DNA from: a virus
Strand: one strand, 5' to 3'
DNA length: 35,743 nucleotides
IMG/VR virus record: IMGVR_UViG_3300049446_000001
Span: 1 to 35,743 of that record
Part shown: piece after piece, positions 1,389 through 19,400 of the stretch
Layout: each line of letters opens with the position of its first letter
How positions within the stretch are numbered: position 1 is the stretch's first letter
Position numbers and translations under genes: made by a program
Notes under the pieces: generated by a model
Told to the model about the DNA's origin: nothing
The model's database searches: none
The model's input: only the letters and a program-made list of their open reading frames with translations

Positions 1389-1580
1389 ATGACTGTGCCG
1401 ATCCTCGGTGAGCCCGACCGACCCGGCGTCACGGTCATCAAGCGCGGCGTCTTCGTCTACGAGTGTCCGACCTGCCGCAAGCGGGAGCGGTTCGATGACG
1501 CCTACGGGCCTGCATGCACGGGTCCTGGTGCGACGGATCAGCACCCGATGCGGCTCATGGCGTTGCTGGGTCGGACATGA
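1389..1580 (+). CDS. Small zinc-ribbon-like protein
   Basis: A 63-residue protein containing YECPTC near residues 24-29 and a later PACTGP followed by HP. This is the spacing of a small zinc ribbon or knuckle with three cysteines and possibly a histidine. Small Cys-motif proteins of this kind are common among phage neck and head genes and are sometimes annotated as FmdB-like. It starts three bases after the homing endonuclease stop and overlaps the glycosyltransferase start (ATGA), so it is probably translated in the same operon. Zinc binding and function are inferred. Confidence 0.6.
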   Translation: MTVPILGEPDRPGVTVIKRGVFVYECPTCRKRERFDDAYGPACTGPGATDQHPMRLMALLGRT

Positions 1581-2674
1581 GGCTGCACGTCGTCAGCCTG
1601 CCCCATAGTCAGACCACTCGCGAGTACGACACGTGTGCGTTCACGGCGAAGGTCCGCAAGTTCGCGGACATGATGACGAGCCTCTCGCACGAGGTTTACC
1701 TCTATGCAGGGGATGAGAACGACGCCGAAGTCACCGAGCTCGTGATCTGCATCACGCGGCAGGAGCAGCGGGATCTCGGCATCCCGGGCCCTGAGCGTGT
1801 GTTCGATGCGTCGTTCGACATACGCGAGCCGCAGTGGCAGCTGATGAACGCTCGAGCGATCGAGGGGATCGAGGAACGCAAGCAACCAGGTGACCTCTTG
1901 TGTGTCATGGCGGGCTGGAACCACAAGCCGATCATGGATGCAACGGGGCTTCGGACGGTGGAGTTCGGGATCGGGTATCCGGGAAGCTTCGCGCCGTTCC
2001 GGGTGTTCGAGTCCTTCGCATGGATGCACGCCACCTACGCGGCCCAGCAAGGACTGTCGCAGGCCGATGGCCGCTTCTACGACGTCGTCATCCCGTCCTA
2101 CTTCGAGGCGGATGCGTTCCCGATGGGCGATGGTTCGGGAGGTTACCTCCTCTACATCGGCCGGCTGACGCAGCGCAAAGGCCTCGCCGTGGTCAAGGAT
2201 CTCGCCGAGCGAACCGGCCTACCGTTGGTCGTGGCTGGCGACGGTGAGCCAGAGTGGATCCCACCCGAGTGCACCTACATCGGACACGTCAACCCTGAGC
2301 AACGGGCCAAGGCCATGGGCGATGCGATCGCGACCGTGGTGCCGACCCTCTACCTAGAGCCGTTCGGGTCGGTGGCCTGCGAGTCGATGATGTGCGGAAC
2401 GCCCGTCCTCACGACCGACTGGGGAGCCTTCACCGAGACTGTGGTTCAGGGCAGGGACGGATGGCGCTGTCGGACCCTTGGCGAGTTCGAGTGGGCCGCG
2501 CTGCACGCCACCGAGCTCGACCGACACGTGATCCGAGCCAACGCCATGGCACGATTCTCCACCGAGAACGTCCGTTGGCAGTATGACCGCTACCTCCGAA
2601 AGATCGCTGCGCTGGATGATGTCGGTTGGTACGAAGCGGCCACTCCTCCGATGCCTGAGCTGATAGGAGCCTGA
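1577..2674 (+). CDS. GT4-family glycosyltransferase (GT-B fold)
   Basis: 365 residues starting at ATG 1577, which overlaps the previous stop by 4 bp. The C-terminal half has the hallmarks of a retaining GT4 enzyme: the donor-domain opening YIGRLTQRKG at residues 193-202 and an EX7E motif, E261-P-F-G...E269, followed by MMCGTPVLTTDWGAF. These bind the nucleotide-sugar diphosphate. The N-terminal Rossmann-like domain (MRLHVVSLPHS) would bind the acceptor. There is no membrane segment. Its place among head genes suggests glycosylation of virion protein or of a host surface glycan. It may cooperate with the fucose cassette at 9250-14004. Sugar and acceptor cannot be read from sequence. Confidence 0.85.
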   Translation: MRLHVVSLPHSQTTREYDTCAFTAKVRKFADMMTSLSHEVYLYAGDENDAEVTELVICITRQEQRDLGIPGPERVFDASFDIREPQWQLMNARAIEGIEERKQPGDLLCVMAGWNHKPIMDATGLRTVEFGIGYPGSFAPFRVFESFAWMHATYAAQQGLSQADGRFYDVVIPSYFEADAFPMGDGSGGYLLYIGRLTQRKGLAVVKDLAERTGLPLVVAGDGEPEWIPPECTYIGHVNPEQRAKAMGDAIATVVPTLYLEPFGSVACESMMCGTPVLTTDWGAFTETVVQGRDGWRCRTLGEFEWAALHATELDRHVIRANAMARFSTENVRWQYDRYLRKIAALDDVGWYEAATPPMPELIGA

Positions 2675-3312
2675 TGGACCCCTTCATCTCCTCCGAGGAC
2701 CTCGCCGCGTTCATGGGGGGAGCGACCATCGAACCGGCACTCGAGGCGATCGCCTTGGATGCGGGTTGTCAGTTGGTCAGGGACTACCTCGAGCAGACGG
2801 TCAACCTCGTCCGCGACGACATCGAGTTTCACGATGGCACAGGTCGAGAAGGCCTGCTACTCAAGGAGCTCCCTGTCATCGAGGTCACGTTAGTCTCCGA
2901 GGATGCCACCGACCTCGCCGAGGACACCGACTACATCGCCTGGAAGGGTGGAGGGATCCTCTGGCGCCAGGGTGGTCAGACCATCCCCTCGAAGTGGGCC
3001 TCGGGTCGACAGAACGTCGAGGTGATTTACGACCACGGATGGGCGATCTCCCAGGATGACGTGGTCGAGACCTCAGAGGGCTTCGAGGTCGACTTGGTGC
3101 CCTCCTCTATCCGACTGGCGGCCTTGGAGGCTGCGGCCCGGATCGTGAGGGCGCCTTCTCTGGCTGCTGTTGCCTCCGGGATCACGGGGGAGACGATCGG
3201 TGCCTACTCGTATACGGCGAGCCTCGGAGCCATGTCCTCAGTCATCGCGGCTGGCCTATTGGCCGAGGAGAAGCTGAGCCTGGATCGGTATCGGCCTGGA
3301 GGACGGGCATGA
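2674..3312 (+). CDS. Head-tail connector protein (gp6-like)
   Basis: 212 residues. The helical N-terminus (ISSEDLAAFMG, then a helix with CQLVRDYLEQTVN), a central beta part (LLLKELPVIEVTLV, DYIAWKGGGILWR, NVEVIYDHGW) and a helical C-terminus match gp6-like/YqbG-type head-tail connectors. These form a ring under the portal and gate the packaged DNA. The start overlaps the glycosyltransferase stop by one base and GGAG lies at 2666-2669. Finding it upstream of the terminase, rather than after the capsid gene with the other neck proteins, is a gene-order departure. The fold assignment rests on pattern alone. Confidence 0.7.
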   Translation: MDPFISSEDLAAFMGGATIEPALEAIALDAGCQLVRDYLEQTVNLVRDDIEFHDGTGREGLLLKELPVIEVTLVSEDATDLAEDTDYIAWKGGGILWRQGGQTIPSKWASGRQNVEVIYDHGWAISQDDVVETSEGFEVDLVPSSIRLAALEAAARIVRAPSLAAVASGITGETIGAYSYTASLGAMSSVIAAGLLAEEKLSLDRYRPGGRA

Positions 3313-6622: not shown

Positions 6623-7891
6623 ATGTCAACCAAGATGCTCGAACAGGCGGAACTCAAGGCGGCCGTGGTCGCCGACCAGCACACGCTCGGTTTCTACATG
6701 CTGGCGTTCTCGAAGACGCCGGACAAGCAGGGCGACGTGATCGCGCCCGACGCGGCGGACGAGTGGCTGAAGTCCTTCTACGCAGCTGGCAATCCGCTGC
6801 CGATTTCCTTCACCCATTCGGCGGTGACCGATGCTGGCGATCCCTTCAACATCATCGGCTACGCCCCAGCAGATCCGCAGCACGTGTTCAAGGACGCTCA
6901 CGGCATCAAGGTGATCGCGAACCTCGACACGGCCGACAACCCCACGGCTCAGCAGGTCTACGCCTTGGCGAAGCGTGGCATCGTGACCGGGGCCTCGGTG
7001 GCGTATTTCACGACCCAAGCGGGGCAGATGCTTCAGAAGGACGGCTCGACGCTCATCACGAAGATCGAGGACATCATCGAGTGCGGTCCGTGCTTGGATC
7101 CGGCGAACGAGGACGCCTTCATCTTCGCCGTGAAGGCCTACACCGAAGAGCCGCTCCCGAGCACCACCCAGGCCCTGAAGGCGCATCTGGAAGGCCCCGT
7201 ACCCGCGGGACACGCTATGGCTACAGGGGCGGTGGACAAGGAGCCGCCGACGTTCCTACCGAACACCCACAAGCGTCTGCACGCAGCGGGGAATGCCGGT
7301 CATAGCCATCCCGGCTTGTCCGCGCAAACCAAAGCCGCCACGCTAGATGAGTCATCCTGGGACAAGGACGTGGCATTAGCTGCGTGCAACTCTGCCGGCG
7401 ATTACGGGCAGATCTGCGCGGGAGAGGTGGCCGCCGGAACGCCCGATCAACGGCAGCACTGGCGTCTCCCCCATCACTACCTCGGCAAGTCTGCCAACCA
7501 TGATGGCGTCATCGCTGCGCGGCAACGGTTCGACCAGACGCAAGGACTGACGAACAGCGCGGAGGCTCGGCGACACCTCTTCGAGGTGCATCGTCTTCCT
7601 TCCGATGCGACCCAGGCATCGCACGATCCAAAGGAGTTGCAGCTGACCTCGCTTGAGTTCATCGAGGCCACCGTCGTCTCGATGAAGGCCGGGCGCGTGA
7701 TCTCGGCCGCGAACCTCGCGAAGCTGCGCGCAGCGCAGGAAGTCATCAACGAACTTCTCGCCTTTGGCGAGTCTGAACTCGCTGCACCCAAGCAGAAGGC
7801 CGATGCCAACGGGGAAGAGCCACAGGCCAACCCGGATGAGCAGGGTCCAGACGCGGAGTTGCGGCGCCAGCTGGCTTCGTTCCTGACGTAG
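6623..7891 (+). CDS. Prohead protease (S78-like) with long C-terminal extension
   Basis: 422 residues, about twice a minimal HK97 prohead protease. Residues 1-175 form the protease: QGDVIAPDA, H65 in ISFTHS, S125 in VTGASVAYF, and a closing ECGPCLDPANEDAFIFAVKAY segment, consistent with the His/Ser dyad of the herpes-protease-like fold. Residues about 230-325 hold a separate conserved block (SSWD..., YGQICAGE, HWRLPHHYLG, TQGLTN) also seen in other phage protease fusions. The tail after 335 is helical and probably acts as scaffold. The protease matures the capsid by cutting the delta domain. AGGAGG lies at 6613-6618. Confidence 0.85.
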   Translation: MSTKMLEQAELKAAVVADQHTLGFYMLAFSKTPDKQGDVIAPDAADEWLKSFYAAGNPLPISFTHSAVTDAGDPFNIIGYAPADPQHVFKDAHGIKVIANLDTADNPTAQQVYALAKRGIVTGASVAYFTTQAGQMLQKDGSTLITKIEDIIECGPCLDPANEDAFIFAVKAYTEEPLPSTTQALKAHLEGPVPAGHAMATGAVDKEPPTFLPNTHKRLHAAGNAGHSHPGLSAQTKAATLDESSWDKDVALAACNSAGDYGQICAGEVAAGTPDQRQHWRLPHHYLGKSANHDGVIAARQRFDQTQGLTNSAEARRHLFEVHRLPSDATQASHDPKELQLTSLEFIEATVVSMKAGRVISAANLAKLRAAQEVINELLAFGESELAAPKQKADANGEEPQANPDEQGPDAELRRQLASFLT

Positions 7892-7937
7892 CCGGCCCCA
7901 GGCCCAGGGTTACGGGCGTACCCCGAAAGGAGATGGC

Positions 7938-9230
7938 ATGGATGCCATCAAGATGCTCGAGGTCGACCTCAAGCACGAGCAGGAGGCCGCCCTCTCGATC
8001 CAGGAGACCGCCGATGCCAGGGGCGAAGGCTTCTCCGACGCCGAGCGAGCGACGCTCAGCGAGCACCTGAAGAACATGGAGCGCCTGACGATCCGGATCG
8101 CGGACGAGAAGGACAAGCAGTCGTTCCGTGAGAAGGTCGAGGGCTTCAACCTTCACGTGAACGGACAGATCGACCCGAACCCCGTTCGCAACGAGGCCCA
8201 GGCCGATGCGTCGTTGAAGGCTCGTTCCCTCGGTGAGGCGTTCGTCTCTTCGGCGACGTTCAAGGCATGGCAGGCCGCGACGAAGGAGAACGGCAAGCCG
8301 CCACGGTTCCAGACCACGTCGGTGTTCGTGCCGGAGAGCCGGTTCCGTGGCGGGATGAAGACGGCCGGCGACCCGGTCCTGGAGTCCGACAACGCGACCG
8401 TGTTCGCTGGCGGGCCTGGGCCACTCACCACGTTCCTCGGGCTCGAGACACCGGGGTTCCTGCAGTTCCGGCTCGCGATCGAGGATCTGCTGACGACGAT
8501 ACCGATCACCACGGGCAACTCGGTCACCTACCCCGTCGTCAAGACGCGGACCCAGATCTCGGGGACGTCACAGGTAGAAGGTGCCGCGAAGCCGGGTGGT
8601 GAGTACGAGTTCGACATGGTCACGAAGACCTTGGAGACCAAGGCAGGCTGGGTCAAGCTCTCGACGCAGTTCATCGAGGACGCGCCCGGACTCGTGGCCT
8701 ACATCAACTCGGACCTCCCGTTGCAGATCCGTCAGAACGTGCAGGCGTACCTCGCCGACGCGCTCTGGGACGCTGCACAGAATCCGGGCGGTGGCGGTGC
8801 AGTCGCGGGTGCTGGAATCGGTGGGACGAACGGGTTCGACGCGATCCTGGAAGCCATCACGGTGATCCAGGAGAACGGTGGAGAGCCGAACGCGATGGTC
8901 ATCGCGCCAGCGGACTGGGCAGCCCTGCGGGCCCTGAAGAACACCGGCGGCGACGAGGACTACGTCGGCGGTGGCCCATTCACGCCTACGAACAACCCGT
9001 GGGATCTGCGAGTGGTGATCACGCCGTCGGCGGTTCCTGGTGAACCGCTCGTCGGGGACTTCGCCCGTGGCGCCAAGATCTACAGCCGCGGCGGATACTC
9101 CGTCGACTCCACGAACACGGATCAGGACGACTTCATCAAGAACAAGTTCACGGTGCGTGCCGAGCGACGTCTCGTCGTCGGCGTGACGTACCCCGAGCTG
9201 TTCGCGGTCGCCCAGACCGGCACCTCGTAG
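7938..9230 (+). CDS. Major capsid protein, HK97 fold
   Basis: 430 residues with an AAGGAG ribosome site at 7926-7931, the clearest in the head region, fitting high expression. Residues 1-75 form a charged coiled-coil delta domain (LEVDLKHEQEA, LSEHLKNMERLTIRIADEKDKQ) expected to be removed by the upstream protease. The rest matches HK97 capsids: FLQFRLAIEDLLTTIPITTGNSVTYP, then E/K-rich strands ending TKAGWVKLSTQFIED (spine helix region), and a C-terminal P-domain with DPWDLRV-like and EERLVVGV-like strands. It builds the icosahedral shell. A hairpin directly follows its stop. Confidence 0.93.
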   Translation: MDAIKMLEVDLKHEQEAALSIQETADARGEGFSDAERATLSEHLKNMERLTIRIADEKDKQSFREKVEGFNLHVNGQIDPNPVRNEAQADASLKARSLGEAFVSSATFKAWQAATKENGKPPRFQTTSVFVPESRFRGGMKTAGDPVLESDNATVFAGGPGPLTTFLGLETPGFLQFRLAIEDLLTTIPITTGNSVTYPVVKTRTQISGTSQVEGAAKPGGEYEFDMVTKTLETKAGWVKLSTQFIEDAPGLVAYINSDLPLQIRQNVQAYLADALWDAAQNPGGGGAVAGAGIGGTNGFDAILEAITVIQENGGEPNAMVIAPADWAALRALKNTGGDEDYVGGGPFTPTNNPWDLRVVITPSAVPGEPLVGDFARGAKIYSRGGYSVDSTNTDQDDFIKNKFTVRAERRLVVGVTYPELFAVAQTGTS

Positions 9231-9237
9231 CAGGGGA

Positions 9238-9280
9238 TGTGGGGGTGGGATGGCTGGGGAGTCGCTGTCCCACCCCCGCG
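9238..9280 (+). promoter_or_regulatory. Inverted repeat covering the gmd start codon
   Basis: GGGGGTGGGA at 9241-9250 is perfectly complementary to TCCCACCCCC at 9268-9277, with a 17-base loop. Wobble and G-C pairs extend it to 13 bp. The 5' arm contains the only plausible ribosome site of gmd and the first base of its ATG at 9250, so the folded RNA would hide the start. There is no U-run, so it is a poor intrinsic terminator. A role in damping translation or stopping read-through after the capsid gene is inferred. Confidence 0.55.
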
Positions 9281-10218
9281 CTCTCATCACGGGGATAACA
9301 GGCCAGGATGGTTCCTACCTCGCCGAACTCCTCCTCGAGCAGGGGTACGAGGTCCACGGGACAGTCCGCAGGTCGTCCCTGCCGAACCTCAGCCGCCTCG
9401 ACGGCATCAGGGATCGGCTGCACCTTCACCACGTCGATCTGACCGACGCCACCGGCCTCGCAGGAGTGATCGCGGCCTCGGATCCCGACGAGGTCTACAA
9501 CCTCGCAGCACTGTCGGACGTGAGGATCAGCTTTGAGGCCCCGGAGTTCTCCGGGAACGTCACGGGACTCGGCTGCACCAGGATCCTGGAACTCTTGCGG
9601 CGCATGAAGCCTGAGGTGCGGTTCTACCAGGCTGGCTCCTCGGAGATGTTCGGGATGTGTCCGAACGTCCCCACGTCGGAGACGGATCCCTTCCTCCCGG
9701 CCTCTCCCTATGCGGTCGCGAAGGTCTACGCGCACCACATGACCAGGCTCTATCGCGACGGGTACGGGATGTTCGCGGCCAACGGCATCCTGTTCAACCA
9801 CGAATCCGAGCGCCGCGGCATCGACTTCGTGACCCGGAAGATCACCGTCGGTCTGGCTGAGATCGTGGCAGGACGCTCGAACGAGCTCGTGCTGGGGAAC
9901 CTCGATGCATCTCGTGACTGGGGATGGGCACCCGACTTCGTAAAGGCGATATGGCTCATGCTCCAGGTCGACCAGCCAGCCGACTACGTCATCGCGACAG
10001 GGGAAACACATTCAGTCCGAGAGTTCCTGGCCGCCGCGTTCGATGTGGTCGGCCTGGACTGGCGGGACTACGTGAAGACCGATCCACGCTACCTCCGCCC
10101 GCTGGATCCTCCGGTGCTGCTGGGCGATGCATCGAAAGCCCAGCGCGAGCTCGGTTGGAAGCCGGAGGTCAGCTTCTCCGAGATCGTTCACATGATGGTT
10201 GCCGCAGATCTGAAGTGA
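9250..10218 (+). CDS. gmd: GDP-mannose 4,6-dehydratase
   Basis: 322 residues, slightly shorter than the usual 340-370. It converts GDP-D-mannose to GDP-4-keto-6-deoxymannose with bound NADP. The Rossmann glycine motif GITGQDGSYLAE lies at residues 15-26, followed by NLAALSDV (84-91), the catalytic SSE at 130-132 and the Tyr-Lys pair Y154-A-V-A-K158. LFNHESERRG (181-190) is a family hallmark, as is DWGWAPDFVKA in the C-terminal half. It is the first gene of the sugar cassette and lies directly after the capsid gene. The start codon sits in a strong hairpin. The product feeds the synthase at 10802. Confidence 0.93.
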   Translation: MAGESLSHPRALITGITGQDGSYLAELLLEQGYEVHGTVRRSSLPNLSRLDGIRDRLHLHHVDLTDATGLAGVIAASDPDEVYNLAALSDVRISFEAPEFSGNVTGLGCTRILELLRRMKPEVRFYQAGSSEMFGMCPNVPTSETDPFLPASPYAVAKVYAHHMTRLYRDGYGMFAANGILFNHESERRGIDFVTRKITVGLAEIVAGRSNELVLGNLDASRDWGWAPDFVKAIWLMLQVDQPADYVIATGETHSVREFLAAAFDVVGLDWRDYVKTDPRYLRPLDPPVLLGDASKAQRELGWKPEVSFSEIVHMMVAADLK

Positions 10219-10805
10219 TGGCGCCTCGCTTCGTCATCACAGGGACCGGCAGACACGGCTCGCGCTACGTCGCGGATGTCCTCACGGCCTCGGGTATCCG
10301 GACCGGACACGAGAAGTGGTGGAACAGCGTCGGCGCAGAGAACGACGGCTATGTCGGGGAATCGTCGTGGCTTGCGGCACCGCATCTGGCCGAGTTCGAC
10401 GGCGTCGTGTTCCATCAGCTCCGTAACCCTTTGCTGGTGGTGAACTCTCTCGTCAAGTTCCCCGAGCCATCACGCGAGGATGCGGTACGCCGTCGGACGG
10501 TGTCGTTATGCGGAGACCCGATCGAGCAGGCGATCCAGATGGTGCTTCATTGGCGCCGGATCTGTGATGCCGCGAGCAGCGCTCGGTGGCGCCTTGAGGA
10601 CTTCTCGGGCGAGATCGTGATGATGATCGCCAAGCGCGTCTGGTGTCCGGTGCTTCCTACCGACGTCGTCGAGGCGATCACGATCACGCCGAGGGATGTC
10701 AACGCTCACACGAGCAGGCCGCGTCTGGAGTGGAGCGACCTCCCTGCGGGGCCCGAGACGACCGCCTTGCGGAGGGCCGCGGAGAAGGACGGGTACTACC
10801 CTTGA
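10218..10805 (+). CDS. Sulfotransferase-like P-loop protein
   Basis: 195 residues starting at ATG 10218, one base overlap with gmd. The N-terminus FVITGTGRHGSRYVADVL (residues 5-22) has the glycine/serine loop that binds the 5'-phosphosulfate of PAPS in sulfotransferases. QLRNPLLVVNSL (67-78) matches the 3'-phosphate-binding R...S segment of that fold. Residues GESSWLAAPHL between them are also typical of small phage and bacterial members. Its place between the two GDP-fucose genes suggests it modifies the same glycan. A nucleoside kinase-like P-loop activity is the main alternative, since the substrate cannot be read from sequence. Confidence 0.65.
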   Translation: MAPRFVITGTGRHGSRYVADVLTASGIRTGHEKWWNSVGAENDGYVGESSWLAAPHLAEFDGVVFHQLRNPLLVVNSLVKFPEPSREDAVRRRTVSLCGDPIEQAIQMVLHWRRICDAASSARWRLEDFSGEIVMMIAKRVWCPVLPTDVVEAITITPRDVNAHTSRPRLEWSDLPAGPETTALRRAAEKDGYYP

Positions 10806-11731
10806 GATGCTTGGTGACCGGTGGAGGCGGGTTCCTGGGCAGGGTGGTCGTGCGTCAGCTGATGACGTTCGGCCACGAGGTCCACTCGCCGCGGAGTTGG
10901 GTCTACGACCTGCGGAAGCGGCAGAAGGTCGAGCAGATGCTCCAGGACATCTCCCCGGAGATCGTCGTGCACCTCGCTGCGGTCGTGGGGGGGATCGGGG
11001 TCAACCAGGCCCGCCCCGGTCGGCTGTTCTACGACAACGTCATCATGGGCGTCGAGCTCATGGAGCAGGCGCGCCGCGCAGGGGTGAGCAAGTTCGTCAC
11101 GATTGGGACGGCGTGCGAGTACCCCGCAGACGCCCCGGTGCCGTTGACGGAGGAGGGCATCTGGGACGGCTACCCCGCCCTTGCCACCGCTCCGTACGGG
11201 ATGGCGAAGAAGGCTCTTCTGGTTCAGGGCCAGGCGTACCGGCAGGAATACGGGCTCAACGCCATCCACCTCATCCCGACGAACCTCTACGGGCCTGGGG
11301 ACAACTTCGACTCGGACACCGGCCATGTCGTCGCCGGCATGATCCGCAAGCTCTCCGACGCCGTCGACAACAAGGACTCCAGCGTCACCCTCTGGGGGAC
11401 TGGTCGTCCCACGCGGGATTTCCTCTACGTCGACGATGCCGCTCGAGGGATCGCCTTGGCGACGGAGGACTACGACGACCCCGAACCGCTCAACATCGGC
11501 ACCGGCGAGGAGCTATCGATCGGTGAGCTCGCTCTCATGGTGTCGCAGTTGTGCGGGTTCTACGGGGAGATCGTGTGGGATGCCAGCTTCCCCGACGGGA
11601 CGCCTCGGCGTTGTCTCGATACCTCGCGAGCCCGAACGTTGATCGGGTTCGAGCCGGTGGTGCTGCTGGACGAGGGGCTTCGGAGCACCGTGCAGTGGTA
11701 TCAGGCGAAAGACCGCAGCCCTGCGGTCTGA
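10802..11731 (+). CDS. fcl: GDP-L-fucose synthase
   Basis: 309 residues. It epimerises and reduces GDP-4-keto-6-deoxymannose to GDP-L-fucose using NADPH. N-terminal TGGGGFLG (residues 6-13) binds the cofactor; TACEYP (103-108) carries the family cysteine C105, with Thr in place of the usual Ser. The catalytic Y132-G-M-A-K136 pair, NLYGPGDNFD (161-170), H175 in GHVVAGMIRK and WGTGRPTRDFLYVDD (198-212) are all present. The start is TTG 10802, whose last two bases are the first two of the preceding stop TGA. No ATG is available in frame. This strict coupling supports a stoichiometric pathway with gmd. Confidence 0.9.
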   Translation: MRCLVTGGGGFLGRVVVRQLMTFGHEVHSPRSWVYDLRKRQKVEQMLQDISPEIVVHLAAVVGGIGVNQARPGRLFYDNVIMGVELMEQARRAGVSKFVTIGTACEYPADAPVPLTEEGIWDGYPALATAPYGMAKKALLVQGQAYRQEYGLNAIHLIPTNLYGPGDNFDSDTGHVVAGMIRKLSDAVDNKDSSVTLWGTGRPTRDFLYVDDAARGIALATEDYDDPEPLNIGTGEELSIGELALMVSQLCGFYGEIVWDASFPDGTPRRCLDTSRARTLIGFEPVVLLDEGLRSTVQWYQAKDRSPAV

Positions 11732-11734
11732 CCG

Positions 11735-12487
11735 GTGATCTCGCTCTGCTGTCCGACTCGGGGCAGACCGGGACGGTTCGCGACGATGCTTCGCTCGGCA
11801 AGGGCCACCGCCAAGCGGCCCTTCGAGGTCTGCGCCTGGCTGGACGACGACGATCCGTCGGTCTATCCCACCGATCCGATCGTCCGATACGGTTCGGGGC
11901 CGCGCCCGTACGTCGACGGGAGCCTCTGTACGTCGGGACTCTGGACGAAGGCATGGGATCTCGCCACCGGGGACATCGCGATGCTCGCCGCCGATGACAT
12001 CCTGTTCCACACGCCGGGCTGGGACGTCGCGGTGGAAGAGGCGATGGCGGCGGTTCCGGACCGGATCGTCATGGTCTACGCGGACGACGGGACGAGGCGG
12101 AAGGCGCCCGTCAACCCGTTCGTGCATCGTCGTTGGATCGAGGCCGCTGGGTTCACGCCCGACGGGTGGCAAGGGTGGTTCGCAGACGAGTGGGTGTGGA
12201 CCTTGGCCGCCAACCTCGGCCGCGTGAAGTTCCTCAAGCAGGTGCGGATCGCGCATTTCCATCGACCGAGGTCGGATGCCACCTATCGGGATGGTGAGGC
12301 AGCGCGGGAGGCTGTGGGAGGTTGGCGGGGGATGCGCGAACGGTTCTACGAGCCCGACATGGTCAGACGGCGTGACGTGCAGTTGGAACACCTGGCGTCG
12401 CTGATGACCTCCGGGCCGTTGCCATTGCCGGATCCCGTTCCTGATTGGTTGAGTGAATCGGTGACGCTGTCCCTGGCGGCGCGGTGA
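11735..12487 (+). CDS. GT-A-like glycosyltransferase
   Basis: 250 residues from GTG 11735, four bases after fcl. The N-terminus ISLCCPTRGRPGRF is typical of GT2-type enzymes. WLDDDDPSVY at residues 35-44 and AADDILF at 85-91 are the two acidic motifs that bind the metal and nucleotide-sugar; the second is the DXD-like site. W180-region WFADEWVW may hold the catalytic acid. There is no membrane segment, so a soluble acceptor such as a phage protein is possible. It overlaps the next glycosyltransferase by 4 bp. Donor identity is unknown; GDP-fucose is a guess from context, although most fucosyltransferases belong to other fold families. Confidence 0.75.
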   Translation: MISLCCPTRGRPGRFATMLRSARATAKRPFEVCAWLDDDDPSVYPTDPIVRYGSGPRPYVDGSLCTSGLWTKAWDLATGDIAMLAADDILFHTPGWDVAVEEAMAAVPDRIVMVYADDGTRRKAPVNPFVHRRWIEAAGFTPDGWQGWFADEWVWTLAANLGRVKFLKQVRIAHFHRPRSDATYRDGEAAREAVGGWRGMRERFYEPDMVRRRDVQLEHLASLMTSGPLPLPDPVPDWLSESVTLSLAAR

Positions 12488-14004
12488 ACGATGACACGCT
12501 CGTCGCCGTCCATTGTTACAGCGGCGACGCTGACAACGTCCGTGCTTTCATGCCCCAGTATCTGCACCACGGTTGTCCGGTTGTGGTGCTCTCGCCCCGA
12601 GACGCACCCGTGCGTATCGAAGGCGTCGACTGCCGTTCCGCCGGCAGGCGCGGCTACTACGGTCAGGCCTCGCTCGACCGCCAGCGCGAGCACCTGAAGA
12701 TCCTGCTGGAGTATCCACAGCGATACTTCCTGCTGAACGATGCGGATTCGTTCTGCCTCTCACCGGAGATCCCCAGGTACCTCTATGAGAACGCCGAAGG
12801 GACGATCTGGTCGACGGAGGTCAAGGAACCCAGGCCCCATCCCTCGCCCTATCCGAAGCTCGGCTTTCACCCGCCGTACTTCATGACCCGGGAGGTCATC
12901 GAGCGGCTGCTGGCCGTGGGGCCGATCAAGGCGCACCCGATCACGCCGTTCATCGACTGGATGATGGTCGCGCTCGCGTGCGAGGCCGGCGTGGCGCACA
13001 GGTCGTTCCCGGACGGTCGCTCGTTCCCCGCGTGGAAGCACGGCCCGATCCCCGAGACCACCGAACTCGGACACAACTACGTCCACCGCGAGGACACACG
13101 CGGGATGGATGGGGCGCGTCGGATGGTCCAGCAGGTCCAGCGGGGCGTCGTGTTCGTCCATTCGGTGAAGCATCCTCACGTCCGCGACCAGCTCGTCCAC
13201 GCCTACGAACTTCGTCAGCGCAGGGAGGCCTTGAGACCGCCCAGGCTGCGACCTGCCCCCCGGGCCCCGTCTACCCCCCCAGACGGCCAACTGAGCGTCT
13301 TGGTGGCCTTCAGGGACCAGAGCCCCGACGGGCACCGTACGAGGCTCTGGGACGTGATCCGGGGGCTCCTGCGCCAGCAGATGCCGGGCGCCGAGGTGCT
13401 TGTCGGGACCGACGACCACGTCCCGTTCTGCAAGACGATCGCGATCAACCGAGCCGCGGCGCAGGCGTCGGGAAACGTCTTCTACATCCTCGATGCGGAT
13501 TCATGGGTCCCCGCTTGGCAGGTACGTGAGGCTCACGCCTGGGTGGACAGCGTGGCCTGGGCGAAGCCGTGGAGCATGAAGTACAAGCTCGGTCCTGAAG
13601 CGACCGCGACCGTTCTGCGGGGGGGATGGGACGGGACCTTCCGCGATGAGTGGCGCCGGGAGCTCGAGCACAGGGGCGGATACATCCCTGCGCCCCCGCT
13701 GGTCGTGTCGCGGGCAGCCTTCGAGGCGGTCGGCGGGATGGACGAGCGGTTCAAGGGCTGGGGCTCGGAGGACGTCGCGTTCTCCCAGGCCCTCTCGGCG
13801 TTGTTCGGTCGGCCGAAGATCATCCGGGGGAACTGCGTGCATCTGCATCACCCCCGGATCGGTCGCTCGGGACGCGATCTGTGGGAAGGGCAGGAAGGGT
13901 ACGCCCACATCGCCCCGCTCGCCGCCGAATACCGCCGCGCCTCCCACTCCGCCGCAGCGATGCGCGAGCTCATCCAGGCACGCGGGGTCAAGGAGATGGC
14001 ATGA
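12484..14004 (+). CDS. Two-domain glycosyltransferase
   Basis: 506 residues from GTG 12484. Two catalytic-looking GT-A units are joined by a proline-rich linker (RPPRLRPAPRAPSTPP, near residue 250). Unit 1, residues 1-240, carries LLNDADSF with D86/D88 as the DXD motif. Unit 2, from about residue 269, begins LSVLVAFRDQSPDG, has ILDADSW near 335-341 and GGMDERFKGWGSEDVAF near 416-432, the signature of the galactosyltransferase-type GT-A C-terminal domain (Glyco_transf_7C). The protein could add two successive sugars. It shares ATGA with the neck gene downstream, so the cassette is welded into the virion operon. Confidence 0.8.
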   Translation: MNDDTLVAVHCYSGDADNVRAFMPQYLHHGCPVVVLSPRDAPVRIEGVDCRSAGRRGYYGQASLDRQREHLKILLEYPQRYFLLNDADSFCLSPEIPRYLYENAEGTIWSTEVKEPRPHPSPYPKLGFHPPYFMTREVIERLLAVGPIKAHPITPFIDWMMVALACEAGVAHRSFPDGRSFPAWKHGPIPETTELGHNYVHREDTRGMDGARRMVQQVQRGVVFVHSVKHPHVRDQLVHAYELRQRREALRPPRLRPAPRAPSTPPDGQLSVLVAFRDQSPDGHRTRLWDVIRGLLRQQMPGAEVLVGTDDHVPFCKTIAINRAAAQASGNVFYILDADSWVPAWQVREAHAWVDSVAWAKPWSMKYKLGPEATATVLRGGWDGTFRDEWRRELEHRGGYIPAPPLVVSRAAFEAVGGMDERFKGWGSEDVAFSQALSALFGRPKIIRGNCVHLHHPRIGRSGRDLWEGQEGYAHIAPLAAEYRRASHSAAAMRELIQARGVKEMA

Positions 14005-14375
14005 CCATCGACACCTCAAGGTATCGGGAGAACCTGGCCCGTCTTCCGCTGGCGTTCCCGTCGCTGGTGACCATCGAGATCCCCACGATCAGCCGGGACC
14101 TCGAGGGAGGCGAAGACGACACCGGAGGAAGGACCGTCCGCTATGCCGACGTTCCCTGTCAGTTCGCCGATACCGGTGCCACCTTCACCGATGAGAACCG
14201 CGTCATCACGGGCACGTTCGAGGACAGCTACCGGTCCGTCTTCCTCCTGGGTGACTGGGCGATCGAGCTGAGCGATGTCCTCGTGCACGACGCGGAGGAA
14301 TGGGACATCCGAGCGGTCCGCCGTGATGATTGGGCAATCGTCACGCATCTGGAGATCGAGAAGAGGAACCCGTGA
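14001..14375 (+). CDS. Head closure (neck) protein
   Basis: 124 residues, starting at ATG 14001 with a 4-bp overlap to the glycosyltransferase. The beta-rich sequence has YADVPCQFADTGA, a middle loop, VFLLGDWAIELSDVLVHDAEEWDIRAV and a closing beta strand. This fits the small beta-barrel head-closure/stopper proteins that dock on the head-tail connector. Such genes commonly precede the gp10-like and terminator genes, as here. The family call is from pattern and order, not from a specific motif. Confidence 0.6.
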   Translation: MTIDTSRYRENLARLPLAFPSLVTIEIPTISRDLEGGEDDTGGRTVRYADVPCQFADTGATFTDENRVITGTFEDSYRSVFLLGDWAIELSDVLVHDAEEWDIRAVRRDDWAIVTHLEIEKRNP

Positions 14376-14740
14376 TCTCGATCAGCGTCGAAGGACTCAC
14401 GAACGCGCTCGAAAGGATCGGAGCGATCGAGGCCCGCGTTGCCCTGGCTGCAAAGCCGATGGCTGAGGCCGTTGCGGATCCGGTCCTGGCTCGTGCCCAA
14501 GCGCTGGTGCCGGTCGATACCGGACACCTTCACGACTCCTTGCAGACGAGACCTGACCCCGAGGATCCGACCGCGGTCCTCGTTGGGACAGATGTGGAGT
14601 ACGCACGCTTCCCCGAGTACGGGACGGTGAACATGGCCGCCGAGCCCTATCTCCGACCCGCCGCTGAAGCTGGTTCCGCGTCCGCAGGCAAGCTCGCTGG
14701 GCTCGTGCTGCTCCGAGCGATAGGACGGTTCGGGCTATGA
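14372..14740 (+). CDS. HK97 gp10-like neck/tail completion protein
   Basis: 122 residues from GTG 14372, which overlaps the previous stop. The family signature is clear: a helix (GLTNALERIGAIE), then ARAQALVPVDTGHLHDSLQT, VGTDVEYARFPEYGTVNMAAEPYLRPA. The VDTG...YA...EYGT...PYLRPA series is diagnostic of HK97 gp10-like proteins, which act at the head-tail joint or tail completion. The next gene overlaps by 4 bp. Confidence 0.88.
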   Translation: MISISVEGLTNALERIGAIEARVALAAKPMAEAVADPVLARAQALVPVDTGHLHDSLQTRPDPEDPTAVLVGTDVEYARFPEYGTVNMAAEPYLRPAAEAGSASAGKLAGLVLLRAIGRFGL

Positions 14741-15108
14741 CGCTCGAGTCGGACATCGTCGACCAGATGGAGATTGACCTCGGTCACTCGCGCATCTTCC
14801 CGGCACCGTTGCCTCAAGGGACCGTGCTTCCTGCCGTGGTCTACCAGCGGATCCTCACAGGACGGTTGCGGGGTCACGAGGGCACGGTGCTCGTCGGTCC
14901 CCTGATCCAGTTCACCTGCTGGGGTCATAGCGCCAGAGACGCCAATGAGCTCGGGCGCGAGGTCACGGCCTCGTGGGAGAACCGTCTGGGCGAAGCCCTG
15001 GTGGAGGACACCCGCGACTCGTACGAGCCCGCAGCGAAGCTCTACCGCCGTGACGTCGACGTCCGGCTGTGGGCTTCGCTCGAAGAAGAACTCGCCGAGC
15101 TGAGCTAA
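14737..15108 (+). CDS. Tail terminator-like protein
   Basis: 123 residues. N-terminal helix (TLESDIVDQMEIDL), then LPAVVYQRI, LVGPLIQFTCWGHSARDANELGREVTASWENRLG and a final beta strand (LYRRDVDVRLWASL). This alpha/beta arrangement and its place between a gp10-like gene and the tail tube gene match tail terminators, which cap the tail tube at the head end. The assignment rests mostly on order and fold pattern. Confidence 0.65.
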   Translation: MTLESDIVDQMEIDLGHSRIFPAPLPQGTVLPAVVYQRILTGRLRGHEGTVLVGPLIQFTCWGHSARDANELGREVTASWENRLGEALVEDTRDSYEPAAKLYRRDVDVRLWASLEEELAELS

Positions 15109-15198
15109 CCGCTCGGCACGCTCTCAAGGAGGGACCGCCTATCGCGTGAGCCTGTAGTGCCGGGGTACTGACAGCACGGACAGAAAGGGGAACACCAG
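15109..15198 (+). other. Short gap before the tail tube gene
   Basis: 90 bases with no ORF of note. They hold AAGGAGGGA at 15128-15136, a ribosome-site-like sequence with no usable start nearby, and the tail tube ribosome site. I see no clear -35/-10 pair. Confidence 0.25.
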
Positions 15199-15618
15199 AT
15201 GGGTGCATCATTGGCACAGGGCTGCACGATCGACTTCAACGGAGCGGTGGCCTTCGTCACGAACATCCAGGGTCTTGGCCCGGAGAACTCCGACGTCGAC
15301 GTGACGTCGCACTCGAGCATGAACCAGACCCGCGAGTTCATCGCTGGTCTGATCGACCCGGGCGAGGTCACACTGGACCTCGACTTCGACTACGCCGACG
15401 GGGGCCAGCAGGGGCTATTCGACAATGCGCTCGCTGCTGCGTCGGACCCGACCGGTTCCACGCAGACGCTCACGATCACGCTTCCCGACGGCTCCTCGAC
15501 CTTCACGGTCGACGCCTACGTGAAGAGCTTCAAGATCTCACTGCCGGCCGATGGTTCGGCGCAGACGGCCGTGGCCGTTCTGAGGACTACCGGTCCGGTC
15601 GCGGCTGGCTTCAGCTAG
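15199..15618 (+). CDS. Major tail (tube) protein
   Basis: 139 residues, preceded by AAAGGGGA at 15184-15191. The compact beta-rich sequence has DVDVTSHSSMNQTREFIAGLIDPGEVTLDLDFDY and KSFKISLPADGSAQTAVAVLRTTG. That combination, with a conserved T...H...R.....GL.D.G.V...L.F, is typical of siphoviral tail tube proteins. Hexameric rings stack to make the tube on the tape measure. It has its own upstream gap (15109-15198) and a terminator-like hairpin afterwards, both fitting a highly expressed gene. There is no C-terminal Ig domain. Confidence 0.85.
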   Translation: MGASLAQGCTIDFNGAVAFVTNIQGLGPENSDVDVTSHSSMNQTREFIAGLIDPGEVTLDLDFDYADGGQQGLFDNALAAASDPTGSTQTLTITLPDGSSTFTVDAYVKSFKISLPADGSAQTAVAVLRTTGPVAAGFS

Positions 15619-15640
15619 GCCAGACGGGATTAGGAAATCG

Positions 15641-15677
15641 GGAGGGCTCACGGCTTACCGCAGGCCGTGGGCTCTCC
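15641..15677 (+). terminator. Terminator-like hairpin after the tail tube gene
   Basis: GGAGGGCTCACGGC at 15641-15654 pairs with GCCGTGGGCTCTCC at 15664-15677 over 14 positions, two of them G-U, with a 9-base loop. It is followed by TTGCACTT, only weakly U-rich. It lies 23 bases after the tail tube stop, where partial termination would keep tube mRNA far above that of downstream tail genes. Confidence 0.6.
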
Positions 15678-15751
15678 TTGCACTTCCCGCACTACCAGCA
15701 CGTCCAGCACGTCCCGCGAGAGGCCCGCTGAGGCCGGATCGGAGTTGCACC

Positions 15752-16210
15752 ATGGGAAGGTTCCTCACCCGCGAGGACATCCTCGCTGCCTCGGACATCA
15801 CGACGGAGATCCTCGAGGTCCCCGAGTGGGATGGATCGGTACGCATCCGGGGATTGACCGGCAACGAGCGCGACGTCTACGAGCAGTCGATCGTGACGAT
15901 GCGCGGCAATAGGGTCCTGCCGAAGTTCGCCGGAGCCCGGGCTCGCCTCGTGGCGCTGTCGATCGTCGATGACGACGGCAAGCTCCTGTTCTCCGAGACC
16001 GACGTCGCCGAGCTCGGGAAGAAGTCGGCATCGGGACTCCAGCGGGTCTACGAGGCCGCCCGCAAGCTGTCGGGTCTGACCGAGGAGGACGTCGACGAGC
16101 TCGTAAAAAACTCCGACGGCGTCCAGAGCGAGCCTTCTACTTCCGTCTCGCGCTCGCCCTCGGACGCCCGGTTGCCGAACTCCTCCAAGCCATCTCCAGT
16201 CGCGAGCTAG
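15752..16210 (+). CDS. Tail assembly chaperone, short form (G-like)
   Basis: 152 residues, zero-frame product. The N-terminal half (FLTREDILAASDITTEILEVPEWDGSVRIRGLTGNERDVYE) is the usual opening of siphoviral tail chaperones that coat the tape measure before tube assembly. Its last 32 residues after the slippery site are Ser/Pro-rich and low-complexity, as expected where the real coding continues in the -1 frame. GGAG lies at 15741-15744. It overlaps the long form described separately. Confidence 0.85.
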   Translation: MGRFLTREDILAASDITTEILEVPEWDGSVRIRGLTGNERDVYEQSIVTMRGNRVLPKFAGARARLVALSIVDDDGKLLFSETDVAELGKKSASGLQRVYEAARKLSGLTEEDVDELVKNSDGVQSEPSTSVSRSPSDARLPNSSKPSPVAS

Positions 16211-16431
16211 CAGAGTGGATGGCCTTCGAGCAGATCGAGGGTCCGGTCTTCGGACCTCGCCGCGACGACCTGCGTGCCGGCGTGATCGCGGCGACGATCG
16301 CCAACGTCAACCGTGGCAAGCGCGACCGGGCGATGAGCCCAGAGGACTTCGCGTTGCGTTTCGAGCGTGCCCGCGAGATGACGCCCGAGGAGCAGGCAGA
16401 AGCGATCCGCAGCGTCCTCGGTGGTTCCTGA
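15752..16431 (+). CDS. Tail assembly chaperone, -1 frameshift product (GT-like)
   Basis: 226-residue fusion made by a -1 shift at AAAAAAC (16105-16111). After the shift the frame from 16111 reads LRRRPERAFYFRLALALGRP, then ELAEWMAFEQIEGPVFGPRRDD and ends EQAEAIRSVLGGS. The W-M-x-F/Y-E pattern is typical of the T domain that recruits the tube protein. No good start exists for the downstream frame alone: the first ATG, at 16219, would omit the conserved N-terminal part. This matches the G/GT strategy of long-tailed phages. Confidence 0.85.
16105..16111 (+). promoter_or_regulatory. -1 programmed ribosomal frameshift site
   Basis: The heptamer A AAA AAC is in the correct phase (zero frame GTA AAA AAC). 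It is a classical slippery sequence allowing both tRNAs to re-pair one base back. The zero frame runs 99 bases further before its stop. No obvious pseudoknot was worked out downstream, though GC-rich sequence follows. Confidence 0.85.
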
Positions 16432-16432
16432 T

Positions 16433-16465
16433 CCCTCCGGTCTTCGGACCGGGGGGTCTTGATTT
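16433..16465 (+). terminator. UUCG-loop hairpin between chaperone and tape measure genes
   Basis: CCCTCCGGTC (16433-16442), TTCG loop (16443-16446), GACCGGGGGG (16447-16456), then TCTTGATTT. The 10-bp stem with one G-U pair and an extra-stable tetraloop followed by a T-rich stretch reads as a rho-independent terminator. It starts one base after the GT stop and 25 bases before the tape measure GTG. Partial termination or RNA-end protection are both possible. Confidence 0.65.
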
Positions 16466-16480
16466 GCGTGGGGACCTGGC

Positions 16481-19400
16481 GTGAGCACGGTCGCGTCGTT
16501 GTGGGTGAAGGTCAACGGGGACGTCTCCGGTCTGACCAAGTCTCTGGCGGTCGCCAACGCCGCGCTGGCCGGGTTCGGGACGAAGTCAAACTCCTCGGCG
16601 GTCAAGGCATCTTCGGCCTTCCGCGTAGCTCAGGTCGCCGCGGTGGGCCTCGGGATCGTGGCCGCAAAGGGACTCGAGGCTGCTCTACACGCGACCGAGG
16701 AGTGGGCCGCGCAGACGCGCCAGCTCGAGCTGACCACTGGGCTCGCTGCCGAGCAAGCCTCGGCCCTGCTCTTCGCTGGGCAGTCCCTGGGGGTCGGGAC
16801 CGATCAGCTCTCTCGGGGGTTCGGCCTGCTCGATAAGAACATCATCAACAACACGACGAACTTCGCGAAGTACGGGATCGCGACTCGGGACGCGCAGGGA
16901 CAGCAACTCGGCTTCATTCCGATCCTGAAGAACGTCGCCGACCAATACACGGCCCTTGGCGGCGGGATCGCGGGAGCGGCCCTGGTTCAGAACGTGTTCG
17001 GTCGGAGTGGCCGATCGCTCCTTCCGATCCTGGCGAGAGGTTCGGCAGGGCTCCAGCAGCTCCTGGATCAGGCGAAGGCATACGGGGCGGTAATCGGCGA
17101 CGACACGGTAGCCGCGGCCAAGAGACTCGCGGTCGCCCAACGTCAACTGGGCCTGTCGTTGCATGGGGTGGCGATCCAGGTCGGTGTGGAGGTACTCCCT
17201 GTCGCCTCAGCCTTCATCTTCGCGCTAACGAAACTCGTCGGTGTCTTGCACCTCATCCCCGGCCCGGTGGTTGCCATCGGCGCCGGCTTCCTCGTGCTGA
17301 CGGGTCTCGTCGCGGGGGCGCAGCTTGTCTTCGGATTCTTCACACAGACCTGGGGCAAGCTCGTCGGAGCGTTCACTGCCAGCGGGGCAGCATCGGGGGC
17401 CGCTGCCGGGGAGATCGGGTCACAGGTGGCCTCTGTGACCGCGCTCGCAGCCTCTGTGGACGCGCTGTTGCCCTCGTTGCAGGCTCTGGCTGGCGTGGAG
17501 GGAGAGGTGGCCCTCTCTGCCTCTGCTGCCGCCAAGGCGATCGGCTTCCAAGCGAGCCAGTCGGGCCTGCTTGTGCCGGAATCGGCTGCGCTGGGAGCCG
17601 CAAACAAGTCGATCATCAGTACGACGGGTGGACTCGGCGGTCTCTCGGCAGCTGCCAGCACCGCTGCGCTCGGTGTGGGTGCTATCGCGGTAGCCCTTGG
17701 GTTCGCGGCCATCCAGGCACGCGATGCCCGTGCTGCCGTCGCCCGCTTCAACGCCTCCGTCTCCTCGAAGCTGACGCAGTTGACTCAGGGAGGGCCTGGG
17801 GCAGCTATCGTCAGGGCACAAGCAGCGACCCCCCTTCCGACGCGGGCTCTCCCCGGATCGATCGCTCTGGGGGGCGGACTGTTCAACCAGGCGCAGGCGA
17901 CCAAGGCCGCTCGGGCCGCCATGGCTCAGTTGGCAGCAGTCCAAGCCCTCGCTGCGAAGTCCTCGACCGCGCTCTCGGCCAGCATCGCTAAGACCGTGGC
18001 CGAACTCGGCGACCTCGGTGCAGCGGCGAGCCTGCCGACCGACTTCTTCGATCAAGCCGTCACGGCCGTCTCGAAGATTCAGGGCGGCTTGGATCAGTTC
18101 ACGAAGGTCTCGGGGATCGACTCAAGCTCGATCGTCTCAGACTTCTCCTCGGCCTCGGCGTCGATCCAGAAGGATCTGGACTCCGGCAAGATCTCTGCCG
18201 TCGAGGCCACGGCTGCGCTGCACGCCGCCGCGTCACAGGCGCTCACTTCGGCCCGGGGTCTCTACAAGCAATGGCACGATCAGATCGTCCAGACCTTCGG
18301 CGGTGCAGGGTCCGCGCTCGACCAGTTCGCGAACAAGTCCAACGTCGACCTCGCCAAGGCGACGCAGAATATCGACCAGTACACAGGCCAGATCCACTCC
18401 TTCGGCTCGGACATCCGCACGATCACGGACGAGTTCGGGAAGCGGTCCAAGGACTTCGTCCAGTTCGCGACGTCGCAGGGACTCGCACAGGCGGGGCTCA
18501 CTCACGCCATCGCTGGCGCATCGAAGAAGGACGCGGCAGCGTTCATCGACAGCTGGAACAGGGCTCAGGGAGCGACGAGTTCGCTCGCTTCCCAGATCCA
18601 GAAGGCCCTGGACCCGATGTTCAACCGGATCATCCTGCAGCTGAAGAACGTCGCCCGAGCGTTCCTGGGTCTTCCGCCGATCACGGCAAAGGACCACGCC
18701 TCCCCGGTGATCGCACGAATCCAGCGCGAGCTCGCGGCACTGCACAGTAAGGCGATCAGCGTCGACGTGACCTACATCCCCCACTCGAGGGATCGTCCGC
18801 CCGTGGTTCCGCATGGTGGTGGACTGATCCGTCACGAGGGTGGGCCGATCGGCCACGCGCAATCGGTGGCACGGATGCACTCGGGCGGCCTCAAGCCCGA
18901 CGAGGTCCCCGCGGTCCTGCAGCGCGGCGAGTACGTGATCCGCCGACAAGCCGTCGCGAAGATCGGGATGCCGGTCCTGGACTCGCTGAACCGCCTGCAC
19001 TCGGGCGGGGACATCGGGGACATGCTCTCGAAGATCCCGACGGCGATCTCCAAGGTCTCGAACCCGGCGCCGTCATCGACGGCCGCGGGGGCATCGCGGA
19101 CCATCGAGCGCTTCCACACCGGGGGCACGACCGAACGGACCCGAGAGGTCTCGCGAACCATCGAGCGCTTCCACACGGGCGGGAACGCCGAGCGCACGTT
19201 CCGATCGATCGAGAAGCTTCACACGGGTGGGATGGCAAGGATGGACCTGGAGGTCCGCGGGCCTCGGGGAGTCCCGCAAGTCTTGCACCTCGGCGGTGCC
19301 GCGAGTGTGCCCGCGATCGCGATGAGCATGTCCCAGGTCGCTCCTGTGTTTCATGCTGGCGGGGTGGTCCTTCACTCCGGCGGCCTGCTTCGTCAGTTCG

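What the first reader, a model, noticed from the sequence alone, without database searches (positions are those of the whole stretch)
9250..14004. A GDP-fucose pathway and glycosyltransferases inside the capsid-neck operon
Gmd and Fcl with all key catalytic residues (one Ser-to-Thr change in Fcl), a sulfotransferase-like protein and two glycosyltransferases lie in one overlapping run between the major capsid gene and the head-closure gene; another GT4 enzyme sits at 1577. The overlap with head genes at the right boundary argues that the cassette is a settled part of virion production. Glycosylated capsids and tail tubes have been described for some mycobacteriophages with glycosyltransferases near virion genes. 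Making the donor sugar itself, and possibly sulfating it, would be a step further. Host wall modification is the competing explanation.
Basis: partly seen in the sequence, partly recalled or inferred. Interest (0 to 1): 0.85.

Follow-up and report, generated by a model that had tools for sequence, protein, structure and literature searches.

The report
Sugar-making cassette in phage head operon
This uncultured phage carries, inside the block of genes that builds its head, enzymes predicted to make an activated sugar (probably GDP-fucose) and attach it to something, and other phages carry the same set in the same kind of place, so it most likely sugar-coats its own particle.

Summary
The cassette is real. 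Between the major capsid gene (ends 9230) and the neck genes lie Gmd, an unassigned protein, an Fcl-like epimerase/reductase and two glycosyltransferases (GTs), joined by overlaps of 1-4 nt or gaps of 3 and 19 nt. Fcl keeps its catalytic residues except Ser-to-Thr at 107. The last GT models as two fused GT-A domains. The 'sulfotransferase' has no support from any search.

Nine further IMG/VR contigs carry all or part of the cassette. Their Gmds and the window's form one clade (SH-aLRT 100), and all ten have head, neck or tail-connector genes beside it. Window and L162 share 56-83% in the cassette, but BLAST no longer links their capsid proteins. Purifying selection is strong (dN/dS 0.05-0.17, L086 against L087). 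The gene between Gmd and Fcl is swapped: unassigned, extra GT, methyltransferase-like, or absent.

Best explanation (0.6): late-expressed glycosylation of the phage's own virion with a phage-made deoxyhexose. Closest tailed-phage model: the methyltransferase/GT run between portal and protease of Corndog-type mycobacteriophages. Chloroviruses already make GDP-fucose for capsid glycans. No chemistry is shown, and the phage has an integrase, so host-surface modification remains a rival. New variant of a known kind.

The parts
1574..2674 (+). GT4-type (group 1) glycosyltransferase; possible extra member, not part of the conserved cassette
   Evidence: PF00534 2e-15, phrog_3408 3e-62; no hit in the related loci at E 1e-4
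7938..9230 (+). major capsid protein (HK97 type), candidate acceptor
   Evidence: PF05065 7.8e-23, phrog_10
9250..10218 (+). Gmd, GDP-mannose 4,6-dehydratase
   Evidence: PF16363 5e-119; solved GMDs; alignment A2
10218..10805 (+). unassigned 195-aa protein in the variable slot (reader: sulfotransferase-like)
   Evidence: no profile or sequence match; poor model
10802..11731 (+). Fcl-like GDP-4-keto-6-deoxymannose epimerase/reductase, TTG start overlapping the previous stop
   Evidence: NF047922 262 bits, below cut-off; PDB GDP-L-fucose synthases; residues; junction
11735..12487 (+). GTa, glycosyltransferase
   Evidence: phrog_14945 2.4e-20; alignment A1
12484..14004 (+). GTb, two-domain GT-A glycosyltransferase
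   Evidence: phrog_1721 8e-16; model pLDDT 80 and fold matches
14001..14375 (+). unassigned gene at the head-closure position, ATGA overlap with GTb
   Evidence: position only; no credible profile match; overlap
14372..14740 (+). HK97-gp10-like neck / tail completion protein
   Evidence: PF04883 3.7e-9, phrog_5 1.1e-16 (run from 14375); GTG start at 14372 read from the sequence
15199..15618 (+). major tail (tube) protein, second candidate acceptor
   Evidence: phrog_158 4.7e-12

Best explanation
A virion-glycosylation cassette with its own donor supply, built into the late head operon. Inferred steps: Gmd takes host GDP-mannose to GDP-4-keto-6-deoxymannose; Fcl epimerises and reduces it to GDP-L-fucose (or a close GDP-6-deoxyhexose); GTa and the two-domain GTb (perhaps with the GT4 enzyme at 1574) build a short glycan on a virion protein made from the same operon, most likely the capsid or tail tube protein. 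The gene between Gmd and Fcl is a swappable finishing step. Shown: gene order, overlaps, homology, active-site residues, the predicted GTb fold, selection, and recurrence beside head genes. Inferred: every reaction, the acceptor, and the benefit.
For: Overlapping gene run with no promoter-like site in 7500-16500. The same core in nine further contigs beside capsid, protease, neck or tail-connector genes. One Gmd clade, SH-aLRT 100. Capsid match 79-2044 bp from the cassette in 5 of 5 clade records with a recognised capsid gene, at least 3.3 kb in the 14 other Gmd/Fcl records with one. dN/dS 0.05-0.17. The GTb C domain is homologous to Dylan gp34, in a methyltransferase-GT-GT-GT run between portal and protease; cluster O enzymes of this kind are reported to modify capsid and tail tube (PMC11600133, passages). 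GTa is nearly absent from bacterial genomes. Viral precedents for a viral Gmd and glycosylated virions (PMC4691112, PMC6105669, passages).
Against: No experiment. Fcl is well below the curated GDP-L-fucose synthase cut-off. No GT has a known donor or acceptor. Adjacency in one clade is one ancestral arrangement, not ten independent ones. The phage has an integrase. No shared acceptor motif: the idea of a Ser/Thr capsid C-terminus failed.
Confidence: 0.6

Rival explanations
1. Host-surface modification: the enzymes change an envelope glycan of the host during late infection or lysogeny (superinfection exclusion, freeing progeny from receptor debris).
For: Integrase in the window; cyanophage Gmd and fucose synthase are read as cell-wall genes (PMC9602691, passages).
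Against: The cassette proteins and the GT4 show no membrane-like segment (highest 19-residue hydropathy 1.48); the cassette is interlocked with head genes; GTa is nearly absent from bacterial genomes. An integrase was found in 0 of 14 related records searched, mostly fragments.
Confidence: 0.22
2. The pathway serves the virion but the sugar is not L-fucose: another GDP-6-deoxyhexose (for example D-rhamnose-like), because the Fcl-like enzyme has diverged.
For: Fcl scores 262 against a cut-off of 500; Fcl is the least conserved cassette enzyme between window and L162, 56%; PBCV-1 Gmd also makes GDP-D-rhamnose (PMC4691112, passages).
Against: C109, Y136, K140, H179 and R209 are kept; nearest solved chains are GDP-L-fucose synthases.
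Confidence: 0.12
3. DNA modification: the GTs put sugars on phage DNA.
For: Phage GTs of other families do this (stated in PMC12619734 and PMC4691112, passages).
Against: No base-modifying enzyme among the window proteins scanned, though the window is a fragment and not every ORF was scanned; position in the head operon.
Confidence: 0.04
4. A passing insertion of host genes without function in the phage.
For: The slot gene varies between phages; L083 GTa appears frameshifted.
Against: Purifying selection, composition like the head genes, recurrence in a clade.
Confidence: 0.02

Closest known systems
Virion-glycosylation genes of Corndog-type (cluster O) mycobacteriophages, e.g. Dylan gp32-gp35
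   Same: Several GTs plus a sugar-modifying gene (O-methyltransferase) embedded in the head operon; gp34 is homologous to the GTb C domain (27%)
   Different: No Gmd or Fcl in the run shown; placed between portal and protease; GTa and the GTb N domain have no counterpart at E 0.01
Chlorovirus PBCV-1 GDP-L-fucose pathway
   Same: Viral Gmd plus epimerase/reductase supplying fucose for a capsid glycan (PMC4691112, passages)
   Different: Eukaryotic large DNA virus; its sequences were not compared here; the reactions are experimentally shown there
Sulfolobus filamentous virus 1
   Same: Encodes a Gmd (51% identical) and putative GTs; virion proteins are glycosylated (PMC6105669, passages)
   Different: Archaeal filamentous enveloped virus; the link between Gmd and the glycans is not shown in the passages read
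Gmd and fucose synthase of T4-like cyanophages (e.g. S-SCSM1)
   Same: Gmd and GDP-L-fucose synthase in one phage
   Different: Large phages, read as cell-wall metabolism; Gmd 53% and Fcl at most about 43% identical to the window in the rows listed; distance to head genes not examined here

Membership tests
GDP-mannose 4,6-dehydratase (Gmd) | profile membership | tested here: met
   PF16363 398 bits, cut-off 27; TIGR01472 409.2 bits, just under its cut-off of 415
GDP-mannose 4,6-dehydratase (Gmd) | catalytic Ser/Thr-x-Glu and Tyr-x3-Lys (roles recalled) | tested here: met
   S130/S131-E132 and Y154/K158 invariant in 7 cassette Gmds and aligned with solved GMDs
GDP-L-fucose synthase (Fcl) | S107/C109/Y136/K140/H179 (roles recalled) | tested here: met
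   C, Y, K, H kept, Thr for Ser107; Thr in 52 of 81 phage homologues
GDP-L-fucose synthase (Fcl) | curated NCBIfam equivalog cut-off | tested here: not met
   262 bits against 500, so it is called Fcl-like, not a proven GDP-fucose synthase
GDP-L-fucose synthase (Fcl) | makes GDP-L-fucose | not testable with these tools
   needs an enzyme assay
Sulfotransferase | profile or fold match | tested here: inconclusive
   no profile or PDB sequence match; model too poor for a fold search
GT-A glycosyltransferase (GTb) | GT-A fold and DxD-type motif | tested here: met
   both halves match GT-A enzymes at Z 14-17; invariant NDAD and DAD
Phage virion-glycosylation cassette | GTs embedded in the virion gene block | tested here: met
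Phage virion-glycosylation cassette | sugar on virion proteins | not testable with these tools
   needs mass spectrometry
Lysogenic-conversion (Gtr-type) modification | membrane-bound flippase and GT proteins (recalled) | tested here: not met
   no membrane-like segment in the five cassette proteins or the GT4; highest 19-residue hydropathy 1.48; other window ORFs were examined only in part

The most novel reading that the evidence does not exclude
Tailed phages with several capsid types share a self-sufficient, exchangeable glycan module that lives inside the head operon: it makes its own GDP-deoxyhexose, carries a swappable finishing enzyme (extra GT, methyltransferase-like protein, or the unknown protein of the window) and sugars the particle, while capsid sequences turn over around it. 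Podovirus-like contigs L173, L180 and L215 may have recruited Gmd, Fcl and the GTb N domain to their own capsid region separately.
Probability: 0.45. Interest if true: 0.75.

Novelty: new variant of a known kind. Interest (0 to 1): 0.6.

Why it matters
In the tailed-phage case read here (Dylan), the virion-glycosylation run carries GTs and a methyltransferase but no donor pathway. A donor pathway fixed in the head operon would show that the particle's sugar coat is worth nearly 5 kb of a small phage genome, would let the sugar be predicted from sequence, and offers a natural experiment: the same core with different finishing genes.

Tried and rejected
An early idea that Fcl lacks His179 (I took the H of GPHDNF for it) was wrong; with 1e6u numbering H179 is kept. 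A common Ser/Thr C-terminus of capsid proteins as acceptor: window, L162, L083, L086 and L087 end in S or T, but L176 and L170 do not, and many capsid relatives in loci without the cassette do. The four tail tube proteins or tail-tube-like ORFs looked at (window, L162, L085, L082) all end in S, too few to use.

The slot protein 10218-10805: profile, PDB-sequence, IMG/VR, INPHARED and PLSDB searches gave nothing, and phmmer over 8413 ORFs of the held loci had a best E of 0.18. Its fold was not searched because the model is poor.

No close relative lacking the cassette was found. The 80 kept capsid relatives (of 302) are 25-40% identical and show no Gmd or Fcl in the DNA held, which is often short; this says little about gain or loss. 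Host: not determined. In podovirus-like L180 the portal-, scaffold- and capsid-like ORFs are named by eye; they have no credible profile match and the capsid-like one no INPHARED match, so this group is not counted as evidence.

Literature: searches listed no paper that I recognised, from titles, abstract starts and the passages read, as describing Gmd/Fcl in a tailed phage's head operon. The library lacks most subscription papers. Freeman 2023 is not held; its content is known only from papers that cite it (passages).

Rows dropped: the Gmd tree left out loci L001, L163, L164, L168, L169, L171, L187, L194, L212 and L241 by hand; L194 and L212 were not true duplicates (they hold the Gmd of the L127 and L130 records). 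Rows also had to reach E 1e-60 and 200 aligned residues (128 kept, plus the window). 'Other' rows in the tree were not all checked for head genes. The capsid-distance test used 100 records: 47 of the 80 Fcl-scan loci, L162, L165, L166, and 50 of the 79 new Gmd-scan loci; 80 of the 100 had no recognised HK97 capsid gene and say nothing.
Full report
What is there. The window is an IMG/VR virus record of 35,743 bases. From left to right it carries a GT4-type glycosyltransferase, a head-tail adaptor, terminase, portal, S78 protease and an HK97-type capsid gene. Then comes the cassette, followed by an unassigned gene, an HK97-gp10-like neck protein, tail terminator, major tail protein, chaperone, tape-measure-like and minor tail genes. 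An integrase lies on the minus strand at 29248-30171, so the phage is probably temperate.

The cassette. Gmd (9250-10218), an unassigned 195-aa protein (10218-10805), Fcl-like (10802-11731), GTa (11735-12487) and GTb (12484-14004) are joined by overlaps of 1-4 nt or a gap of 3 nt. The capsid-Gmd gap is 19 nt, and GTb overlaps the following gene by 4 nt. No promoter-like site was found between 7500 and 16500 (0.9 expected by chance); the four terminator-like sites (2.9 expected) all lie beyond 16100. GC and GC3 are like those of the head genes.

The enzymes. Gmd is clear, though 6 bits under the strict NCBI cut-off. Fcl keeps C109, Y136, K140, H179 and R209, with Thr for S107; Thr is the commoner residue in the phage homologues aligned, 52 of 81. 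It scores well below the curated GDP-L-fucose synthase cut-off, so GDP-fucose is the likeliest, not a proven, product. GTb models well (pLDDT 80, pTM 0.52) as two GT-A domains. The N half is nearest to beta-1,3-galactosyl and N-acetylglucosaminyl transferases (Z about 16), the C half to beta-1,4-galactosyltransferases (Z about 16). Foldseek's best whole-chain matches are two-domain chondroitin polymerases, but with low TM scores (about 0.3), so the domain arrangement is not matched. A bifunctional, glycan-extending enzyme is plausible (inference). The 'sulfotransferase' is not supported by any search made.

Relatives. A scan with Fcl kept 80 loci. Tblastn with the window's proteins showed Gmd, Fcl, GTa and GTb matches together in L082, L083, L085, L086, L087 and L095 (details; in L087 the contig ends in GTa and the GTb match is the extra GT). 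Scans with GTa added L162 and with Gmd L170 and L176. Some are cut by contig ends, some have GTa and GTb parts fused (L082, L095, L170), and L083 GTa appears frameshifted. L162 is the most telling. It has TerS, TerL (57%), a portal match, S78 protease, a capsid protein that BLAST does not link to the window's at E 1e-3, then Gmd (78%), GTx, Fcl (56%), GTa (83%), an HNH-like ORF (by eye), GTb (72%), then neck, terminator, tail tube, chaperone and tape measure in the window's order. In L083 and L176 the capsid gene is directly before Gmd; in L086 and L087 portal, protease and capsid come before it; in L082 and L085 neck and tail genes follow; in L095 the S78 protease follows (PF04586 8.7e-14); in L170 the capsid gene comes before and a protease-like gene after.

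The variable slot. Between Gmd and Fcl: an unassigned protein (window); a GT homologous to the N half of GTb (L083, L085, L086, L087, L162); a methyltransferase-like protein in L082 and L176 (69% identical to each other; Methyltransf_23 6e-4 and 0.034, both below cut-off); nothing (L095, L170). This suggests a finishing step that is exchanged while the core stays.

Is the position more than chance? In a tree of 129 Gmds, the ten head-cassette Gmds form one clade with SH-aLRT 100; 0 of 500 label shuffles did as well. An HK97 capsid gene was recognised in 20 of 100 Gmd/Fcl/GTa-bearing records. The capsid match lies 79-2044 bp from the cassette in 5 of 5 clade records, 3.3-45 kb from Gmd or Fcl in the 14 other such records, and 2.2 kb from GTa in one GTa-only record, L166. 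The five are related, so this shows persistence at the site, not five independent insertions. Capsids in the clade fall into three sets: window, L170, L176 (29-46%); L162, L086, L087 (42-92%), linked to L170/L176 only at about 25%; and L083, linked to none at E 1e-3. Cassette proteins other than Fcl are more alike between window and L162 than their terminase, tail tube or chaperone are: either the module moves between phages into the same place, or capsid and tail genes change faster around it.

Selection. For L086 against L087, where dS is below 1, dN/dS is 0.17 (Gmd), 0.10 (Fcl), 0.06 (GTx) and 0.05 (GTa, 145 codons), against 0.17 for the capsid (simple Nei-Gojobori). The enzymes are being kept working.

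Function. GTa looks almost confined to viruses: one weak hit (27%) in a pattern scan of 84,980 prokaryote genomes (a scan of this kind misses distant relatives), and 47 INPHARED phages, all under 60% identity, 45 of them Streptomyces phages. More distant GTa homologues lie near a capsid gene in L166 and a capsid-like gene (by eye) in L165. The GTb C domain is homologous to gp34 of Mycobacterium phage Dylan, in a run O-methyltransferase, GT, GT, GT between portal and protease. Enzymes of this cluster are said to modify capsid and tail tube (PMC11600133, passages, citing Freeman 2023), and glycans to sit at the C-termini of both (PMC12619734, passages, same source). By analogy I commit to virion glycosylation at 0.6. 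Host-surface change is the main rival: the phage has an integrase, and cyanophage Gmd and fucose synthase are read that way (PMC9602691, passages); but enzymes without membrane-like segments, the place in the head operon and the near-absence of GTa from bacteria speak against it.

Precedents. Chlorovirus PBCV-1 makes GDP-L-fucose with its own Gmd and epimerase/reductase, and fucose is in its glycan core (PMC4691112, passages). Sulfolobus filamentous virus 1 encodes a Gmd and has glycosylated virion proteins (PMC6105669, passages). The idea is thus known in other viruses; a donor-to-glycan module fixed in the head operon of tailed phages was not recognised in the listings of searches. Hence: new variant of a known kind.

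Noticed in passing
L173, L180, L215: Podovirus-like contigs with Gmd, Fcl and a homologue of the GTb N domain (39-49%) between a scaffold-like and a capsid-like ORF (named by eye); their Gmds lie outside the head-cassette clade.
   Followed up: partly
L125, L126, L132, L158, L199, L209, L216: Another phage group with Fcl and Gmd side by side, in most a few kb upstream of a portal match.
   Followed up: partly
29248-30171 (-): Tyrosine-type integrase (PF00589 5e-18); none found in 14 related records.
   Followed up: partly
2674-3312: Head-tail adaptor (phrog_442 1e-22) encoded upstream of the terminase genes rather than after the capsid.
   Followed up: no
L162:8942-9490, L083:8422-8955, L086:2953-3453: HNH-endonuclease-like ORFs (by eye) inside or beside the cassette, a possible route for its movement.
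   Followed up: no
L083:9857-10606: GTa of L083 is broken by an apparent frameshift (4 stops in the starting frame); sequencing error not excluded.
   Followed up: no
969-1385: ORF that looks by eye like a homing endonuclease; no Pfam match.
   Followed up: no
24822-25814 and 25860-26546: Tail-region protein with a PKD domain, and an NlpC/P60 protein.
   Followed up: no
33890-34609: Single-strand annealing protein (PF04098 6e-5; phrog_3290 1e-25).
   Followed up: no
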